The notes under the pieces were generated by a model, which did no database searches, had not been told where the DNA came from, and was given only the letters and a program-made list of their open reading frames with translations. A stretch of 64,000 bases of DNA. Origin: Tubiluchus corallicola (taxonomy: Eukaryota > Priapulida > Priapulimorpha > Priapulimorphida > Tubiluchidae). Position numbers and translations under genes: made by a program. Each line of letters begins with the position of its first letter. Within the stretch, counting starts at the first letter, position 1. Below are positions 480 to 61,609 of the stretch, one piece after another. The DNA lies in contig JAQGDQ010000082.1 of the NCBI GenBank assembly GCA_030141605.1, forward strand, positions 608,501 to 672,500, written 5' to 3'.

Positions 480-1049
480 TTAAGGTCTTAGCCTGTCTAA
501 CCGTTCAACTGTATGCCGATATTCCTTCTCCGTCTCCTCGTAGAGTTTCTGCAGTCTATCTAACCGATCTTGGGGGGACAAATTATCAAATGTGGCATTT
601 ATTTCCTCTGACGAGAGTGCCTTTTTTAGTTTTTCGTGAAACTGTTTGTATTTACTGAAAGGTTTATTGAGCCTGTTTTTCACATCGAGACGATAAATCT
701 TGTACTCGCTTTCGTCTGACGTGTTCGTTACTCGAAGACGGAGGATTTCATAAACCCGCCTTGCCTGCTTCTTATTAATACGTAACTTCTCCCGAGCCTC
801 TGATGCCATTGCACTCGAGAATCCTTCCTTCAATCTATCTGAATTGAATGCTTCCAATTTAGAACAGTTTTTGGCGTCGACGTAGTCACGAATGCGCATG
901 AAATCATCCGAAGGATCCTCGACCGTAATGTCGACTACGTCAGAAACATGAATTATATCATCATACACGGCTTGGAGCAGACGAGATCCAAGACCCTGCT
1001 TCTGGAATGGAGGCAGGATAAGCATCTGACTAATCCTTGGCCTAATTTT
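480..1049 (-). CDS. HAT1: HAT1 coding exon 6, terminal (residues 245-433)
   Basis: Acceptor TTTTTTCCTTGCAG before 1049; stop TAA at 482-480. Holds the acetyl-CoA-binding loop QKQGLGSRLL, the EDPS catalytic region, INKKQARRVYEILRL and a charged C-terminal helix. The open frame upstream to 1106 is intron read-through. An uninterrupted 570-nt terminal exon contrasts with the shorter exons before it. Confidence 0.96.
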   Translation of the reverse strand, partial: KIRPRISQMLILPPFQKQGLGSRLLQAVYDDIIHVSDVVDITVEDPSDDFMRIRDYVDAKNCSKLEAFNSDRLKEGFSSAMASEAREKLRINKKQARRVYEILRLRVTNTSDESEYKIYRLDVKNRLNKPFSKYKQFHEKLKKALSSEEINATFDNLSPQDRLDRLQKLYEETEKEYRHTVERLDRLRP

Positions 1050-4000
1050 CTGCAAGGAAAAAATTGCTTGCATAAAATTGTACTGAAAACGAGCAGAAAC
1101 TCGCATTTTAAATGCTAAAATTTGACAGGAAGAAAAACGGTTCTTATTTTTTTACTGTCAGTTTTAAATGCAATAATTTTTACCTTTGGATATGCATAGT
1201 AGTTATAAACGGTCATGTAACCGGCTATGCTGTATATCGGATTGCCTTCGGTCACATTTTTTTCAAATATAAGATAGTAATTCCATCTATAAATTATGAA
1301 AGAAAATAGTTTTTTAATGTTACTGAAAATAAAATACAATACGTAAGCACATATATAGGTTTACATTAAACTTTTATACACACACACACACACGCACAAT
1401 TCGCAAAAATGCACATGCACAGGCAATATTTTAAATTGACAGTAATAAAGTACAGTCAACCTCGGGACCAGAAAACACTGTCCCTTGTATCCGAAGTTGA
1501 GTCAGACCGAGGGTGTATCTAGACCTGTACTTTTACCCATATTTTTAGGGATTATTGCTACACATTCAGTGCAAATGGTATGTAGTGATGCGAGATGTAT
1601 GTGACCGCGGAAACCGAACTCTTCAAAGGCCGAGTTTGCGAAAAAAAATGAGGTTAAAAATCGATCAATTTCGCTTTGATCATAGGGTCCCTTATATGTG
1701 AAATAATTTACCTGGGTTTCTATTACGTGGAACCAGAAGATATCGTCCCTTATAATCGAAAGTCCCTTATATCCGAGTACCTTATATGCGAAGATTTTTA
1801 CATAGGAAAAAGGTTACGAAAAATCGGGACCGGTGTTCGTGGTCCTTATAAGCGAACACCTTATACCCGAGGTTGACTGTATAGTAAACAATAAAGACTC
1901 TAAACACTACAAAGAGAAATGAGTTTGTGGATGAAGAGAGAAGCAACGATGTGAACATAATGGTAAGAACAAATCTCAAAAAAAATTAGCTGAAAATCTC
2001 AACAAATAACTATAATATTAATTATAAGATTTGACTTGCATAAGTCACTAATATCAGAAATATGGGTGAATGTCTGAGCAGAGGAATGGTTCAACAACAC
2101 TTCTCATTTCAAAAACAGAGGCTATTGCCTATTACCTATCGTCATCAGCATCAATGAACGAAGCCCCATCTATGAACCATAGTATAAAAGTCTGCAAACG
2201 CTCGTGGTACTCCCGGAAACCAGGAGAAGACATGTCAGCCTTGTAGACTTCATATGTTTTATTTTTTATGCCTGAAACAAACATAAACAAATGCATAGAA
2301 AAGGAGCACAAACTTTGAAAAAAGTTTACAGTTAAGAAATAAACAAGTATTCAAATAATCTTGATAGCAATTATCTATTGTTTAATGTATCAGAACCAAA
2401 CAGCAGCCAAATTATAATTTTATAATGTCGCAAATCTACGAGAAAGGCAGCAATTTTCCTCCTAGATCCTCTATCAGTCTTTTAATCGGGCTAAACACCC
2501 ATAAATACATGCTTACACATAAATACTACACTACGCATACATAAATACTATACCATCATTTTGCATTGATAGACAACTTTCATTATGCATTGACACACCT
2601 TTGTCGAAAGTGTTGATTAAACAACCGAATGGCTTGAAATCTTCATCTTTCGGCAATTGCAACGTAAAATCATCTAAAGTTTGGCAATAACCTGGTGGAA
2701 TAACCTGCAAACATAGCAAATTTTGTAGCTAAAAAAATACTACTTTATAAAACTTCAAACAATGAACGTGCTAGGTGTTACCAACATCGCTACCAGTGTT
2801 TATGCACCACCGTAAATTAATTTTCCAACTACTGTAAACCTAATATGTATCACGGCAACTGAAAGATTATACCATGCTAGATCCCATTACGAGACTAAAT
2901 TTCCTTTCAAATGCATGTCCATAATTTTAGTACAGTAGGCGCCGCTTAACAGACTCACGGTTAATAGACTCGTCGCGTAATTGACTCAAAAATGCCCAGT
3001 ATGGGTCACTTCTATTCAAATGTACATAAAAACTGTCGGTAATTAACTCTAATAACTCCGCATAATTGACTCAACATTTTTGCTTCACATGCTTCAATAA
3101 GACACTTTCGTGTGACTAATAAACTTTTATGACTTTTACATTATCTTAGTTCGCTTTTGTCCTATAATATACATAGAAACAATCATGTTAAGTACTGTTT
3201 TTTTGTTTGTAAGCAGGAATGTTTATCATACGTTAATATGCTAGCCTAATGGTTTGCTTTGACCTGCCGGTCCACTCCAATTAACCTCGTAACCCAAGAA
3301 TTCCTAGGAAACTAAACATTTAATCACTTGCTTAGCAGTTTGCTTTTGAAGCTCTGGCTGTCTTTCCCAGAAAGTTTAATCAGTGAGATATTGCTGTTAT
3401 GCCAGGGATGCAGGTACAGTACAGTAAGTACATCACATTATAGTACGCGGGCGCTTAGACGAAGCTACAGACGCAGCTGCGGGGAAACACGAGTATTTGA
3501 CAAGAATTTGCGCATCATACACAACAGATTTTCAATGTCTTTATCATTATGAGAACTTTGTGAGCCAACTTCTTCGCGATAAAATGAAAAAGCCGACTTT
3601 GATGGAATTTTTGTAATTTTTGCAAATAGACAGACTTGTGTGATTTAGAAAAGTAAATCACCCATCGGTTAATTGGGTCAAAACACTTCGGTCCTAAATT
3701 GAGTCTATTAAGCGGCACCTACTGTATCGCCAAAAAATTTCAATTCGGTAAACTATTGCGCCGATCAATGCTGAATTTATGAAGAAATGTAAAAATAAAA
3801 TATTTAAATCTTACAGCAAAACTTGTGGTTTTGAAATGTTTAGAAAATTTAAAATTTTGAAATGTTTAGCACATTGTTACGACAAAATTATTTACATTTG
3901 GAAACCATATTTCGTACAATTGCCTTCCCGATGAGATCCCTATCCCAGGTTTTAATCACTCAAGCTGTTTTGTTGCACTACTTAGTACTTATTTCACATT

Positions 4001-9124: not shown

Positions 9125-10727
9125 TCAGATTTTGGGCTTAAAGCGTGACATATAGAAGTCGCAGTCTGAACAGTACAATGCTGGTGGTACAATGTGTTTG
9201 ACCCGGCACAAATGACAGGGCACAGTCCTTATTCCTTCTTCTGGCATTGGGAATTCCTGGACTCCATTTGTGCGATTCTTATTTGGCATCTTTAGTGCTG
9301 GTTTAGGAGGAGAAGCAGTCTTTGGAATGGGAACACCGGTTTCGTTCATGTCTACGCAAATCTCAGCTGGTTCTTCACAAAATGTAACACGTCGTACACC
9401 ATCTGCCTGAGATGTTGACGGTTGTTTCTCACGTTTCCTTGGCAACGTGCAGTAGTTTGATATCCGCTTGTTATCAGTCTCATTAAGTACAGTTCTCATT
9501 CCTTCAGTATCAGCTGATGATGTTCTCACTAATTCGAACCTCCTTGCAAGCTCTTTAACATTAAGTTTTGTACTGTTCTCATCAACTTCATCTTCATTAA
9601 TATTCACAAAGGCTGGTTTGACAAACGTCCTTTCCAGCCCAACAGTAAAACCAGAACTGTCATCATTATTAGTTCTCACTGGTTCAGATTGTACACTACA
9701 AGTATCACTCTCTGTCCATGGTTTATCAGTTTCTCGGTTTTGAATTCTATTATATTCTTCTAAGTTTGAACTCGACAAATTAAGTTTTCGTTTCGCAATT
9801 TCTGCTTTTTGCTTCTCTTGCAAGTCAAGTTCACGCAAACGGCTACTGTATAACAATTCCAATTGTTTTTTCACATTGTCCACAGATTCACTGGGTTTTG
9901 AAGGAGATGGCGATTCTTTCTGTTCATTATCGCCCTGGCCAGAGAAGCTTGCAGAACGATTAAGAGTAGTTCCAAATCGCACACTATAAATACCTTCATT
10001 TTCTTGTGAAGATAACTGCTTGGGTTCTAAATCTGTATATTCTGCGTTAATACTGTTAATACGACTTGCCAGACTACCATCCGAAGCACTCAATTTGTCA
10101 GAAGTACGAGACCCGCTTGCAGACGCACTTAACGAATCAACATAGGAGTCATCATTAATGAGTAGGCCCAGTCGTTGAGCTGCCAAAGGCTGACTGCCAT
10201 CTGAAGGGAGTGAACTTAAACAAACATCAGTTCCACCACCTAAGCTATTTAAACTAGTTGACGAAGCAAACATAGTCTCTGCACCACAGTTGCCCGATTC
10301 CAAATTAGTATCACTCAATCCAGCTCGAAGATCTGGCAAGCTTTGATTCCGACTTCGTTCCCCCTGTGAACTGCGTAGTTTATTCTTATCCCGTGCTTTT
10401 AGTATTTTCATTAATTCGACTGCACTTGGCTTGCGCACAGACATTTGAGGAGTTTTGGAAGTGGTCGGCTGCACACCAGACACTGGTCCTGTTACTGTTG
10501 ACACGGATGAGACAGAGCTATTTGACTGTATCGAGGACTGACGTGAATGATTAACTTCCGGTAATGGAAGCGAATACGGCAAGCCAGTTGTTGCGACAGT
10601 AGTTGTGGTAATTGGTGACGGAGTATAATGACAAGAAGCAAAAGATGAAGCTGCAGGAAAATTGTAAGCAGACATAGGTGCACGAGATTCTTCTACTACT
10701 TGGCTGCTCGACTTCATCCCATAATTT
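9125..10727 (-). CDS. USP53/54 coding exon 13, terminal (residues 960-1493)
   Basis: 1603 nt; acceptor TTCACTTACAG before 10727, stop TGA 9127-9125. Mostly disordered Ser-rich tail, a charged likely coiled-coil ([20 protein letters not shown]) near residue 1250, and a terminal CHLC-x11-CSDC motif that could bind zinc, ending [11 protein letters not shown]. Confidence 0.95.
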
Positions 10728-13700
10728 CTGTAAGTGAAAAGAAAGCAAAATGGAAACGGTGTGATAAACTGGTTTTGGCATTTCAAATTATTTGGTGAAC
10801 TGTTTTATTTATGAATTCACAAAGCAAGTACTTGGGAATATATTGAAAATGGCACACATTATCTACATTATATATTGAACAAAGGCAACTGTTGCGTCAA
10901 AATAACAAACTCTGAAAATAATTTGCATGTAAAAGGCAGTAAAAGAATTACTGTGAAGTAAGAAATGACATCTCGATCACGAAGAGTCAAGTTGGCTTTG
11001 CGTTAAATGTGCCTCTAAGTCACATCAATTTATTTGCCAGCAGCTTGGGACATATCAGGAGTCTGTTGTGTAGGTCTTTTTCACGTTTTATTTAGTATGA
11101 AACACTAACATTCAGAATTTTATAGTATGAAGTACTAGCATTCAGAATTTTATATACTTCAGGTAAAATAAAGAAGTATACAATATTATTAAATTCGAAC
11201 TACTGTTGATAATAGCAACAACAACATCTAATTTCAGCAAACAAAAATATGTGCTTACCTATTGTTAATCATTGCATGCTGCTGTTGTTGCTGTGGGTTT
11301 ATTCGTTGATATAGCGTAGTTAGGTGCAGAGAAATTGTGTCATATTTGACTCGTGCATGTTCTAAAGATTCTGCATCTGGTGCTGAAACCTCTAAAGCTT
11401 GTTGAACGCAACCTTAAATAAATTAACAAAACATATTTAAAATAAAATGTCTAAAAGGTTTCTAAATTAAACCAGAAACCTTTTAACAACTGTTCTGGTG
11501 ATATGTTTTGTCTCGCATAGACTTTAAACATGCATTTCAAAGCAGCACAAGTGACATGGTTACATTTTCCATTACATTTAATCCTATTTTCAATGAACTT
11601 GAAATGATTATAACTTCATATGATCTATACGGAAAACAAAAATTCTCCTTACAAAAAATCCATACCTGAAGTCTGTTAGCAAACTGATGAAGCACTTTTT
11701 CATAGCAGAAATTAAAAAAAAACAAGACAAAAATTGTTTTTTGAAGAAAATTAACAACTTACTTGATGCAGCTGTGCAAAGAGCTAAAGCAGTCTTCAAG
11801 TCTCCATAAGTCTCTCTAATTCTTGACTGTTCCAAAAGACTGTCTGCTTCTAAGCACAAACTCTCGCATGGATTCTTGCAACCAACGATGACAGCTTTTG
11901 TAATTGGATCAGGATTACTAAAGTCTGTCATTTGATGTTCCATACTTTGGTCCAAAGTTAAATCGCATTCGGTGCTTTGATGTGATGTAATTTCCTCTTG
12001 CTTCAGTGTTTGATTTTCCACAACTTTCTGCAGCTTATTTGGTTGAGTATTATGAGTAAATGACGTAGCTGAACACTGACTTGATGAAAGACTCTCCAAA
12101 GATGTCAACGAGTTTGTGTCATCTTGGTGTAATAATTTGTTTGGCGATTTCTTAAAACTGGCATTACTGGACATACTAGCGAAGCTTTCAGTGCTACCAT
12201 GCAATCGGGAGTCTTTAAAGTCGTAATGAATTGCACGTACTGGAGCAGTCAGATTCATGACAGTGTGGTCTGAATTATGCCGCCGTTCCGGAATTCCTTT
12301 ATTATGCTGAAACCAGTTCAGCAATGCATTCATTGACTTAGCCTGATTTTCTGCTGCAGGAGGGGATTCGGTGGAGGAGCTTGTGCTGCTAGCACTATTC
12401 CGGTCGCCACTCTTGTAGCCAGAATCTCGCCTATGCGCCATGACAATAGCTTCAGGTATGTCAACTTTTAACTCTCCTTGGTAGCGCCGACGTGCTGCTT
12501 GCTCTGCAAACGATTCTATACTACTGTTACTGCTTCTGCTACCTGGAGTACCAGTAACTGGGCTACTCGACTTCTGAAAGTGTTTCTGCATGTTCAGTAC
12601 ACTCTCAACTGTACGTCTATCAATATAGGAATTTTCAATTGAGTTGCACTGTCCGTGGGTTTCAGGAGCGCTGAAGCCGTTTGATGTGAGATCATAACCA
12701 TTGCATGTAGACGAAGACGTTAAGGACTTGTTGTGAGGCAGTGTGGTATAACCATTAATAAGGTTACAGTCTGATGATGCAGCATTCAAAATGTTATTAT
12801 ACGACGCTGAAGTGTGCATTACTTTTGCAACAGCAGGATCAGTGATCTGATTAATTATACTTCCATCAGTTGCAAAGTGTCCAGGCTGAGAAGTGTTGCT
12901 ACCACTACCTCCTGCATGACATCGAATTATGTCGGTGCTCAGACGATCCCGTCCGCCACGTAAGCTTTCTCCTCTTTTTATCTGATTTGTGTGCACATGA
13001 GAAACTGGCTTTCTTAATGGTGAACTAGAAGCTTTTGCGGCATTGTTGCGGTAATGATTATTATTTGACAGTGTGTACTCAAAGTCTTCAACTGGTCCAG
13101 TAATCTGTCCTGACCATGACTGCTCTGATGAACAACTTGAATAGTCCTGTAGTGAGTGCCTCATGATGGCCTCAAGTGAGTCATCAGTTTTATTTAATGT
13201 ATCATCCAATCTAATAAAAAGCAAAAGAAAAATCTGTCAAAAATGATTCTTTCTGACAAATGCAATCAAAATACTATTCTTGCACTACTACTATTAACTA
13301 CTCAAGCATTTTATATACTGATTCTTATTAAGAACTATGAAGTGAAAGGAATACATAGCTTGGTCAAACATAAAGATAAAACAATTACCACTAACTGTGA
13401 GTCAAAATTAAATCACAGAAAAACTACCACGTTACAATTATTGCCAGTGTAAAATATTATTTTAAACACTTACCTATAGCTTCCCTCAGCTCTATAGTTA
13501 TTATAGTCAACAGCATCACCATTTGAGAGATGTTTAGAGCCAGTTTCGCCATCATGTAAGGAACTTGGAGTTACAGGACGAGCAAAATCTTTCATCAAAC
13601 CGTTGGGCATCTTTTGCGACATGTGAAGGTTGTCCTTGAAGCCTTTCAGGAAAAAAGAGATAAAAAATTAGTGAAAGCAAATGAACAAGAATAATCCATT

Positions 13701-16700
13701 TCCAATAACTCATTTTAATTATAATTTTTTAACACATAAACTTACAAATTTTGCAAAGAACAAAAAACTGCATTGAAGCTACCAAAATACAATAATCTTT
13801 ATCTCACCAGTAGCTCTCAAACCTGAATGCTGTAAAACCTTTTATCGTATACTCAAACCTACCAGGACTAAACGGTCGGCAACCTGGCACCATCGTAATA
13901 TGAGAAGGAGCAGCATCAACTGCGACTGGTAAGCCATGTGGATTCGCATAGAGTAAAAGCAGTGGCTGATAGTTTCCACGGCAACACTTGTCAACAACAT
14001 TCTCCCAAGAACCAATCTGTAAATTAAAACAATTCCTTATACAATGAACAAAAAGAGAACTCATTTTTAAAATCATAAAAGACAGGTGTGCAAAGAAATT
14101 GTTAAACGTAAGATAAGAGAAGCTATTTACCTCACGCACTCGAGCATCATCAAAATAAATCCACATATCACGTGACGTGTGGTAGAAAAAGGTTGAGTAA
14201 TGCTTGCCGTAATAAGAAACTATTCCTACTAGATTTAACATAGGTGACGCCTTCCATCTCTCGTCCAACACTGATGAGAAAATCTAGAGAAGGAAAGAAA
14301 AACACTTAAAGCAAATATTTTGATTTTTTTCAAGGCTTTTCCAAAAAATAGACTAACCAGTTTTCAAGCTGTTTATCAATTTCCTAATAAATTAAACACA
14401 AACAGAGATAATGAAACTGATATAAACTCACAAGTAACACGGCCAAGCATCACATTGCTATGTATGTATTATACCATATACATGTATGCTGATGTTACTT
14501 ACGTCGGGCAAACGTATGCACGCTCCGATGGCTTGCACTACTTCTTGAATATGGTGTGGCTTTGGCTTTTCCGATTCCCATGCTAAGCCTATGCTGATAA
14601 TATCAGGACAGTTGAGTAAATTTCTCCGGATTCTATTTCTTTCCCCACAATTTGCCTGAAAAACAAAACAAACTTAAGATAACCTTCTTTGAAAATGTCC
14701 ATTACCTCTAACAAAATATGGTATTTACAGCTGTCCTTTTGCCAGAACGGAAACAGTTTTTGTGCTACTAAATATAACCAAAGTAGCAACACAACAGAAG
14801 TAAACATTAAATAATTGAAATAGGAAAACTATTATAAAAAGAGGTACAACCCAGGCAGAGATCAATGAGTTAGTCACATGCTTAATATGAATACACTTAC
14901 AGGACAGTTGCGGAAATCTCCCATGGCTCCAGCTCTCCGCAATAATCGACCAAATCTCTCTAATGAAGTATCATCGGTTCTTTCAATAACTCTGCTCTCC
15001 GCTCTATAAAAAAATTTAACAGCGATACCTTTTAACTATTGTCTTGCCAACAATAGAACATATTTTTGATTCATTTACGAATATCTTGTCTCGCATTTAC
15101 CGTTTTCAATTTAAAAACGTACTATGAAGCAAATTAAACGGCTAGTGTTATTACAGTTAAATCATAGTAAGCTAGTTAAATCACATTCATTTGTAAAAAG
15201 TTCATTGTTTTCCATATGTAATCTCTATACCTATACCTCCAAATTAGTTGTGAATAGCCTAACAATGGAAAAAATTTGATGTTTTCCCTGACTTTAATGA
15301 CTTTTAAATGTTTAATCACAAGGATCATTTCAAATACATACGCTAAGGCAGTGGCTGATACATAATGCACCATTTGAGAATAAGGTGGTAGTTCAGTAGC
15401 AGCACCACAGCGGCCACATATACTCTGTGAAAGAAAATAAAATCAAAATGTTTTAATTATAAAATTTCTGCAAAAATTTTTTTTATAATTTTTTTATGCT
15501 AACTCCTAAAATCAATAACGGGTTAAAGCAATCTTAGGAACTGTAGAAAAAGAAAAAAACAAATTCTATGAAAGCTATCACTAACGTTACAAAGGAAAAA
15601 ATTAAATTAGATTTAATATTTCTTTCCAATGCAGACAGAAAACCACAGCTGATCTGCAATGTTATAATTCACACAGGAACAGAAACTAGCAACTGAAAAA
15701 ACGTAGCAATCGAATAAAGTCAGTCATAGATGGTTTATCAATAGTTTCGCAATAATGTTTGTAGTTCAGGAACTTTTAGAGAAGTAATCTTACCTGTTCT
15801 GAAATTCGCATGGAAAACTTCTGGTGAGATATGCAGTACTCTGCAGTACAGTTATCTTCTGGCTCAGAATGAGCAATGTGAAAATGCAGACGCTGCAACA
15901 TGTTTTCCTATAAATAACACAAAAACAAGAATATGTTTAGTGGTTAAAATACGTGTCAGAATCAAAATAGATTTTTCGGAACGTTGCATTTGGAAGGCCA
16001 TTATTAGCAAACGAATCAACATTTACATTCAAAGTAAATAAATAATTCACTTATTACTAGAAACTTTTAGAAACATGGCCACAGGTGGCACTGAGCCCTA
16101 GTACATGTGAGGCTCCTGAAGTTCAGGTTAATTGTGGTAGCACCAAGACTAATTATAAAATGTCCACCAAATTATTTGAATAAAATTAAGAGACTAGAAC
16201 CTAAAAATATAACTTATATAAAGAAATTTTCTATAAACAAATTTTTTACTAAACTTATCAGCTTAAACCAGCAAGTGAAACTTAAAAGGTAAACTTGTTA
16301 AATTATAACAAATTCCAATTGATGCGTTTTTATTGTTTTATTGCCAAGAGAATCTTGGAAAATATAGCAAATCCTGGAACTTTCACAAATCCTGTATTAA
16401 CCAATTTTATAAGGCACAGCACACAATAACCTATTGATAAATTAGTCAAAAATAAAAAGAAAACAAGAGCTTAACTTACAAAACACTCAGCTGCATCATC
16501 CATTAAACCAAGTTGAAATCTTTGCTGATCTTGAAATGTTTCGGCAAGAGCTTTTCTGAGAGAATCTGGTGGCAAGACGGTCTGTGAACTATACTGGAAC
16601 TGAGTGAACAGCATCTGTGAAAAACAACAAACAGAAATTGAAATAATTAGAAAAGTCAACTATATATCTATAGATACAAATAATCATCCAAATAGTATGG

Positions 16701-48939: not shown

Positions 48940-49265
48940 AAAGAAAGAGGGCGAGAGAGAGAAAAAGAGAGAGAAGGAAAGGCAGAGAGGGAGAGGGAGT
49001 ATGAGAGAAAAGAGTCTGGGGAAAGAAAGGGAAAGGAAAAGGAAAAGAGAGAAACGGAGAGAGAGGTCTAAGTAATAGTTAAAAAGAGAGGCACAAAAAT
49101 CAAATAGAAGAGGCAGAAGAAAGAGACAAGGGGAAAGGAAAAGACAGAAAGAGAGAGGGAGATCTGAGTAATAGTTAAAAAGAGAGGCACAAATCAATCA
49201 ATGGAAGAGGCAGAAAGATGGAAGTGGCACACTATTAATATATGAGTTGAAATGCCACACTATTA
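48940..49265. repeat. Purine-rich tract with a ~95-bp internal repeat
   Basis: Roughly 270 bases almost purely A/G on the plus strand. AGTAATAGTTAAAAAGAGAG plus GCACAAA occurs at about 49071 and 49167, and GCCACACTATTAATATATG-type words recur at the right edge. The long minus-strand Leu/Ser/Phe frame here is an artefact of this composition. Confidence 0.8.
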
Positions 49266-59555: not shown

Positions 59556-59796
59556 GAAAAGTATACTGTTCAATTAAATTTTTACAAAATATTTTGTGAT
59601 ATTTTTGCATGAACGTTAAGTAATTTGTAGAAGTTTTAATTAGTTACAAAAAGTCACGAAATCCTCATAATTATTTTCAAATTAATGAGAGCTACCACCG
59701 TGCCTGAAAATTTCTAAACAGTGACAGCATAAGTTAACAAAAAATTACAAAAAGCCACAAGTCAATTTTTATTACAGGCATTTAGAAACTTTTATA

Positions 59797-60020
59797 GTTA
59801 AAACAACTCATCTTTATTAAAACTTTTACTTTACAAAGTTAAAATGTTAAAATTATGCCAAACGTTTCGACAGACAACTGCTGTCATCATCAGTGGTATG
59901 TTTGCATGTTTGTAAATTTATCACTGACAATGACAGCAGTAGTCTGTCGAAACGTTTGGCACGATTTTAAATTTTTAACTTTGTAAAGTAGAAGTTTCAA
60001 TAAAGTTGTGACGCTTTAAC
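59797..60020. mobile_element. Palindromic repeat with hammerhead-ribozyme-like cores
   Basis: Two ~100-nt arms in inverted orientation. Each arm carries GACAG-loop-CTGTC directly before GAAACGTTTGGC. On the minus strand of the left arm the preceding core is CTGATGA (59893-59887), giving the hammerhead pattern CTGATGA, stem II, GAAA (GAAAC at 59868-59864). The right arm (plus strand, 59924-59953) has CTGACAA, a degenerate core. Inverted copies fit the long-terminal-repeat-like ends of Penelope-like retroelements, which are known to encode hammerhead motifs. Helix III and the cleavage site could not be convincingly folded by hand. Confidence 0.5.
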
Positions 60021-61609
60021 TAAAAAACCCACAAAGTTTGCTAGTTACATCATTATTTTCAATTGAATGGCAGTTACCAAAAACAAAAATTCATATCCCG
60101 AGGCGACATAGGTTGACTTTATGCATTTATAGACAGTTTTAGCATATTTTTGTTAGTTTTTTCTAGTTTTAAGTGACAAAAGTAAAAAGTAAACCCAACA
60201 CGTTAAATGACTTAACATTTCCTTTAAGTAATAATACCCTCTTGCTGAGTCTAGGTCTCTGTTTGCAGAATGGCTACTAGCATGTTTTGATGTGGTACAT
60301 GCAAAATTTCTATAAGCAACTTGTGAGTGAGTACCATCAATTTACTCACCATCAAAAGACGAGTTACATAATGAGTTTTTAACGATTTGGGACGTGGTAA
60401 TATCGATTGTTTTAAAGGTCAAAATAATTTATTTGACAAATAGAGAGAATAATAAATGGCGAAAATAGGCAGATATCATTAAATTTGCCAAAAACCTTAA
60501 ACATGTCATAACTGCCCGCAGTAAAAGTCTCATGTTTTGTTATCATTATTATAAAGATTTTGATTCTTTGACTTGTTATTCGATTCAGTTGGTAGGCTGT
60601 TTATTGTTTGGATATCTTTGTTTGTTTGGAAAAACACAGAACAGCAGCTAGTTTTTATCTTTTCATTCAATATATTACAAATATTCGTAAATCCATAACA
60701 AAATTAATCTAACTTTAAAACAAAATTTAATAGAACATACAGGTCTTCCAGCAATGGAACTTGAAAATGTAGAGTGCGAAGATGACCATCTAAAATTTTT
60801 GTGCTGTCACCTAGTGACTGATTCAAAATGTAGTTCAAATTTCAAATTTTTGCTTTTCAACATTTACCTTTGTGCAAACGAATGAGTGACGACATTTTCT
60901 CTTTTTCCGTGAAACTGAGTGTGATTTCGCAATTTTCCGAAAATTTTGTCAAAATTGTAGATATAAAATGCTTTTAACTTGCCACTAAACTATACAATAA
61001 TTTCTATGAGTCCTTTTATACTTATGACTAAGATCTTGAAGTAAGAATTTATTTAAATATTGTTAATTACGGATTTTTTGTGTGTATAATGGTCATTTCT
61101 TATTGAGTGAACACCATCAGTGTTGAGTCAGTTAACTTCTCATTGTTTTGCACACTGCATTATGGCCCTGTGAATGCCTAATTTTTTACTTGCAATTAAA
61201 GTAAATTGTCAACGTAAAGCACTACATAGTCCTTCCTGTACTTTTAGGAATTGCGATTTATTCCAGCAACTGACTATTGCTGAGTTCAGTTTCGGTTCGT
61301 TCAAAGTCAGTTTTCTTTCCTGATAATGTTCCCGGTTAACTGTGGGCATGCTTTAATATTTTTATACCTTTTTATTTAAAAGTTTTTAGAAACCGTCTGC
61401 TCGACTGATTCTTATTAATGCATAATATTGGTATAGGCCTATTATTAGTAAAATGTTTATATTTCAGGTAGTATAAAATAGAATGCTGTGCTAAATATTT
61501 AAAATATGGTCACTCTATAGATGTATAGAAAACTCGGAAGGTTTCAGCAGATAGTTACTTTTCGGGTTTTTAGAGACAGTAGCTGCAAAATTCTAATAAA
61601 ATTTTTCAG
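60021..61609. other. Unassigned, upstream of the SAP30BP-like gene
   Basis: AT-rich, no supported exon. If the plus-strand gene has an untranslated first exon, as the acceptor at 61607-61609 suggests, it may lie here or further left. Confidence 0.4.

What the first reader, a model, noticed from the sequence alone, without database searches (positions are those of the whole stretch)
59797..60020. Inverted pair of hammerhead-ribozyme-like cores in a palindromic repeat
The left arm (minus strand) reads CTGATGA, a GACAG/CTGUC stem, then GAAAC; the right arm (plus strand) keeps the stem and GAAAC but has CTGACAA. Conservation of stem and GAAA in both arms suggests a selected RNA motif in the source element. 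Hammerhead motifs in the terminal repeats of Penelope-like elements are established knowledge. Head-to-head placement of two copies, one canonical and one decayed, is the unusual part.
Basis: partly seen in the sequence, partly recalled or inferred. Interest (0 to 1): 0.65.

Follow-up and report, generated by a model that had tools for sequence, protein, structure and literature searches.

The report
Penelope-type retroelement remnant with hammerhead motifs
The palindrome is a small, dead insertion of a common Penelope-like jumping element, whose two head-to-head end repeats each carry a hammerhead-type ribozyme motif (one intact at its core, one broken); this layout is ordinary for such elements.

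Summary
Window 59761-60022 is a 262-bp, 84% complementary head-to-head pair. The minus-strand left arm reads CTGATGA-T-GACAG..CTGTC-GAAACGTT. The plus-strand right arm has CTGACAA, with the catalytic G8 changed to A.

It is one of more than 500 copies in its own 343-Mb genome. The anatomy matches that published for Penelope-like elements (PLEs): a pseudo-LTR with a TATA box; a fixed 3' end and variable 5' truncation; a second, inverted pseudo-LTR upstream; a 31-bp 'tail' on only one outer end (21 of 27 pairs); and direct target-site duplications around the whole pair (here AAAAAGCCACAA/AAAAACCCACAA).

The head-to-head layout it called unusual is a textbook PLE form.

The hammerhead is the minimal, helix-III-less PLE variant. 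No Rfam model fires at threshold; one intact relative gave sub-threshold hammerhead hits. Core conservation and covariation within the family do not show selection on the RNA. Another subfamily shows a compensated stem II change.

No Penelope ORF was physically linked to these repeats, but decayed PLE RT and endonuclease pieces occur elsewhere in the genome.

Verdict: new member of a known kind; low interest.

The parts
59761..60022 (.). Whole insertion: head-to-head pair of Penelope-type pseudo-LTRs, no ORF between them
   Evidence: Consensus match on both strands; flanked by a target duplication; joined flanks align across the join with a neighbouring diverged unit
59749..59760 (.). Left target-site duplication AAAAAGCCACAA (its last 2 bases could equally belong to the element's CTT end)
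   Evidence: 11/12 identical to 60023-60034
60023..60034 (.). Right target-site duplication AAAAACCCACAA
59761..59906 (-). Left pseudo-LTR with tail (consensus positions 258 to 110)
   Evidence: 92% identity to the family consensus (locus L001)
59761..59789 (-). Tail, the roughly 31-bp 3' extension (consensus 228-258) found at one outer end only
   Evidence: Present on the left, absent on the right; the same one-sided pattern in 21 of 27 pairs
59861..59893 (-). Left hammerhead core: CUGAUGA (59893-59887), stem II GACAG/CUGUC, GAAAC (59868-59864), GU and U17 (59863-59861); predicted cut after 59861; only 3 bp of helix I remain (CCA/UGG)
   Evidence: Sequence; consensus comparison; cut site inferred from PLE hammerheads
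59899..60022 (+). Right pseudo-LTR, tail-less (consensus positions 98 to about 226); overlaps the left arm by 8 bp at the junction
   Evidence: 89% identity to consensus
59924..59956 (+). Right hammerhead core, broken: CUGACAA with G8 changed to A at 59929; stem II and GAAACGUU kept
   Evidence: Sequence; C3 and G8 single mutants of the Anolis PLE ribozyme lose activity (PMC11167929)

Best explanation
It is a short, non-coding insertion of a Penelope-like retroelement family: two pseudo-LTRs head-to-head with no ORF between them. Inferred mechanism: an RNA made from a pseudo-LTR promoter (the family consensus has TATATAAA) was reverse-transcribed in trans by a PLE protein. Synthesis started at the 3' end of the tail, primed from a nick in AT-rich DNA. 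The second, inverted copy was made during the same event by self-priming or template switching, and it ended at the tail-less stop. Staggered cuts left a 12-bp target duplication around the whole pair. Each repeat carries the minimal, helix-III-less hammerhead variant known from PLEs. In this copy it is now a passenger: the right core has lost G8, the left has lost most of helix I, and any transcript of the whole pair would fold into one long hairpin. Shown: family, anatomy, tail asymmetry, target duplications, variable junctions, core state. Inferred: enzyme, priming route, and any past ribozyme activity.
For: More than 500 copies. Sharp 3' end and variable 5' ends. One outer end has a tail of about 31 bp and the other does not in 21 of 27 pairs, and junction positions differ between loci. 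Target duplications enclose whole pairs: mean match score 8.1 against 4.9 for reassigned flanks. Joined flanks align with a neighbouring unit. The published anatomy of A. vaga Penelope is the same: head-to-head pseudo-LTRs, shorter inverted copy, 31-bp tail, TATA box, 8-10 bp duplications (PMC3846280). In the Anolis PLE the ORF starts at stem II and RT starts 111-118 nt into it; [quoted passage not shown]). Decayed PLE RT and endonuclease pieces are present in the genome.
Against: No PLE ORF was found joined to these repeats; the one RT locus read (L087) has no copy of the repeat within 4 kb. No Rfam hammerhead hit at threshold. No sign of selection on the core or of covariation within the family.
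Confidence: 0.86

Rival explanations
1. It is a MITE: a non-autonomous DNA transposon with long terminal inverted repeats, cut and pasted by a transposase that recognises the two identical ends.
For: Long inverted repeats flanked by short direct duplications; small, AT-rich, high copy number.
Against: The two ends are not equivalent: a tail of about 31 bp is on one end only (21 of 27 pairs). The inner junction differs between loci. Several loci show a single arm with no inverted partner found in the flank, and many are 5'-truncated. Duplication length varies.
Confidence: 0.07
2. The family is a metazoan retrozyme: a small non-autonomous element spread through circular RNAs that are cut out by hammerhead ribozymes in direct tandem repeats.
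For: Small AT-rich element with a type I-like hammerhead core; retrozymes are thought to be mobilised by PLEs (PMC7761336).
Against: Published animal retrozymes are direct tandem arrays of 150-450 bp with more complete hammerheads (PMC7229834). Here copies are inverted pairs or truncated singles, with a PLE-type tail and TATA box.
Confidence: 0.05
3. The palindrome is a host hairpin RNA gene, such as a microRNA precursor, rather than element debris.
For: Very stable hairpin, -123.4 kcal/mol, z -20; sub-threshold matches to several microRNA hairpin models.
Against: All the microRNA matches lie below the curated cut-offs, belong to unrelated families and occur on both strands, as any long palindrome would give. 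The hairpin follows from the inverted insertion.
Confidence: 0.02

Closest known systems
Penelope elements with inverted pseudo-LTRs, e.g. Pen2a_Av of Adineta vaga (PMC3846280)
   Same: Head-to-head pseudo-LTRs, shorter inverted copy, tail of about 31 bp at one end, TATA box, short target duplications, solo and truncated copies
   Different: No ORF in the window copy or in the copies seen; at least 500 copies; that paper does not mention a hammerhead motif
PAc (Poseidon) of Anolis carolinensis (PMC11167929)
   Same: Hammerhead in the pseudo-LTR; ATG at the start of stem II; two end points about 100-130 nt beyond it; AT-rich targets
   Different: PAc is an ORF-bearing element in tandem; here ORF-less pairs, mostly inverted, with the reading frame from that ATG closed by a stop in the consensus
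Minimal PLE hammerheads / RAGATH-1-hammerhead (RF03152)
   Same: Core nucleotides, short stem II, no helix III loop; RF03152 is the top sub-threshold Rfam match of one intact copy
   Different: Score 17.3 against a cut-off of 56.3; no hit in three other tested stretches
Metazoan retrozymes (PMC7229834)
   Same: Small, AT-rich, non-autonomous, hammerhead-bearing, probably moved by PLE enzymes
   Different: Retrozymes are direct tandem repeats with more complete hammerheads; this family forms inverted pairs

Membership tests
Penelope-like element (PLE) | ORF with telomerase-like RT and (usually) a GIY-YIG endonuclease, joined to the repeats | tested here: inconclusive
   None in the window copy.
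Penelope-like element (PLE) | Pseudo-LTRs in direct or head-to-head inverted arrangement | tested here: met
   27 inverted pairs in the sampled loci
Penelope-like element (PLE) | Optional tail of about 30-40 bp at one end only | tested here: met
   About 31 bp (consensus 228-258) on one outer end in 21 of 27 pairs
Penelope-like element (PLE) | 5' truncation and variable-length target duplication | tested here: met
   Variable 5' ends; duplications around whole pairs
Hammerhead ribozyme | Conserved core CUGANGA and GAAA with U16.1, H17 at the cut site | tested here: met
   Left arm and family consensus meet it; 26 of 57 copies are fully intact. The right arm fails at G8
Hammerhead ribozyme | Three helices including helix III, and a match to a curated model | tested here: not met
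   No helix III loop (sequence); no Rfam hit at gathering score. PLE variants are known to lack helix III (PMC6155905)
Hammerhead ribozyme | Compensatory changes in its helices | tested here: inconclusive
   None beyond shuffles within the family; one two-sided change in stem II of another subfamily, at two sites
Hammerhead ribozyme | Self-cleavage, as monomer or dimer | not testable with these tools
   Needs an in vitro assay
MITE / DNA transposon | Two equivalent terminal inverted repeats and fixed-length target duplication | tested here: not met
   Ends unequal by about 31 bp; single-arm copies; variable junctions and duplication lengths

The most novel reading that the evidence does not exclude
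The family is a large set of ORF-less PLE pseudo-LTR insertions in which the inverted partner is made anew at each insertion: junction positions differ between copies, while the tail end is fixed. The genome would then hold a large natural record of how PLE reverse transcriptase starts at two sites and how it forms head-to-head repeats.
Probability: 0.5. Interest if true: 0.35.

Novelty: new member of a known kind. Interest (0 to 1): 0.17.

Why it matters
It corrects the reading of a striking palindrome: two opposed hammerhead-like cores are what a PLE insertion with inverted pseudo-LTRs should look like, not an unusual ribozyme arrangement. The one modest gain is the copy set itself. Hundreds of short copies with fixed tail ends, variable junctions and target duplications could test models of PLE priming and second-strand synthesis that rest on few elements.

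Tried and rejected
Rfam scans of the whole window and of single arms: no hammerhead hit in the window. The microRNA hits were rejected as an effect of the long hairpin. The GIY-YIG Pfam search found five long ORFs that are bacterial uvrC genes on contaminant or symbiont contigs, plus one short broken match. Thirty RVT_1 loci were searched for CTGA[TC]GA...GAAAC motifs: three matches, none with a short family-type stem II loop. Covariation in stems I and II across copies: none beyond shuffles. Core conservation against the rest: not significant. Single-arm RNA folding: no better than shuffles, and the minimum-energy folds do not show the hammerhead. A first empty-site alignment used overlapping sequences and was discarded; the corrected one is. 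Two key papers on PLE hammerheads, and one on giant PLE-related elements, are not held.

Full report
What is there. Window 59761-60022 is a 262-bp near-palindrome with arms 84% complementary and 4 nt apart. The left arm, read on the minus strand, holds CUGAUGA-U-GACAG-CAGUUGU-CUGUC-GAAACGUU (59893-59861). The right arm, on the plus strand, holds CUGACAA-U-GACAG-CAGUAGU-CUGUC-GAAACGUU (59924-59956). The match by itself is weak (0.18 expected per window), but the family behind it is not: CTGATGATGACAGCAGTAG with at most one mismatch occurs 530 times in the 343-Mb genome, against 3 for the reversed control. DNA searches found over 1000 candidate places, of which 40 were scored per search.

What element it is. 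I compared 41 loci, each with 1.5 kb of flank, with a 258-bp consensus. Two of these (L038, L039) are near-identical, and L009, L016 and L017 share flanks, so they are not all independent. Read in the hammerhead direction, copies share a sharp 3' end (...GTAATAAAAATTGACTT) and have variable 5' ends. The repeat contains TATATAAA upstream of the hammerhead core. Most loci carry a second, inverted copy upstream. In 21 of 27 such pairs one outer end reaches consensus position 251-258 while the other stops at 221-235, so a tail of about 31 bp is present at one end only (my count from its table). The junction between the two arms differs from locus to locus. Flanks outside the pairs match each other far better than reassigned flanks (mean score 8.1 against 4.9, maximum 5.4 in 30 shuffles), with duplications of about 7-14 bp at most loci. 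In the window the duplication is AAAAAGCCACAA (59749-59760) and AAAAACCCACAA (60023-60034). Joining the flanks gives a site that aligns, without a gap at the join, to a diverged neighbouring unit starting at 59644 (score 58; shuffles at most 51).

Comparison with known elements. PMC3846280 describes Penelope elements of Adineta vaga with inverted pseudo-LTRs head-to-head, a shorter inverted copy, a 31-bp tail at one end, a TATA box and 8-10 bp target duplications. It also says that head-to-head is the most frequently observed arrangement and attributes it to self-priming. PMC11167929 shows for the Anolis PLE that the ORF begins at hammerhead stem II, that the cut lies 26 nt downstream of the ATG, that reverse transcription starts 111-118 nt into the ORF, and that the tail is the stretch between two RT start sites. 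[quoted passage not shown] This close agreement of anatomy is the main argument for PLE membership.

What could not be shown. No copy was seen joined to a PLE ORF. A probe written from general knowledge of PLE RTs found ten decayed matches (best E 1.4e-9). One of these loci (L087) also encodes, downstream and in the expected order, a Cys-rich endonuclease-like stretch (CSVCQELYNGQTKRPVRDRLMEHIRN) with 17 matches in the genome. No copy of the repeat lies in the 4 kb read there. Further loci could not be read. So the genome has PLE fossils, but the physical link is missing.

The ribozyme question. The core belongs to the minimal type described for PLEs: GAAAC-GU without a helix III loop, which is thought to act as dimers (PMC7761336; PMC6155905). 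Rfam models do not reach threshold. One intact relative, L022, gives RAGATH-1-hammerhead and Hammerhead_3 as its two best matches by score and E-value out of 4227 families, at the correct place and strand but with E 1.2 and 4.1. L021 and the window arms give none. Within the family the core is not more conserved than random sites (P about 0.11), and helices I and II show no covariation beyond shuffles. A different subfamily has stem II GACTGCA/TGCAGTC (54 sites at up to 2 mismatches, no controls). Two sites with otherwise identical sequence carry GACAGCA/TGCTGTC, a two-sided change that keeps the pair. That is suggestive but may be a single event. In the window copy, the right core has lost G8, which is essential in the Anolis ribozyme (PMC11167929). 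The left core keeps its nucleotides but has only 3 bp of helix I. A transcript of the whole pair folds into one hairpin at -123.4 kcal/mol, which would compete with any ribozyme fold. This copy is very probably inactive.

Verdict. The part it singled out as unusual, the head-to-head pair with one decayed core, is a standard PLE form plus neutral decay. New member of a known kind; low interest.

Noticed in passing
L081-L084 and L086 (G000 contigs C1247, C1597, C2076, C1761, C1997): Complete bacterial uvrC genes with bacterial neighbours sit on contigs of this eukaryotic assembly: contaminants or symbionts, apparently from more than one bacterial lineage.
   Followed up: no
L087:1836-2650 (G000 C307) and C562:109922-110811: Decayed Penelope-type RT followed by a Cys-rich GIY-YIG-like endonuclease stretch; about 17 endonuclease matches in the genome.
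   Followed up: partly
G000 C478:368613-368776, C1349:460713-460891 and other places: A second hammerhead-bearing subfamily with a 7-bp stem II (GACTGCA/TGCAGTC), also in head-to-head pairs. Two sites (C1056, C1562) show a compensated A-T/T-A swap.
   Followed up: partly
window 59644-59760 and 60035-60079: The element sits in a diverged duplication of about 101 bp; the neighbouring unit serves as a paralogous empty site.
   Followed up: yes
window 49023-49215: Two purine-rich tandem copies of a 96-bp unit.
   Followed up: no
window 480-1151 and 9125-14283, minus strand: Host genes: a histone acetyltransferase HAT1 exon (Pfam HAT1_C) and a ubiquitin hydrolase-like gene (13804-14283 matches UCH just below its cut-off).
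   Followed up: no
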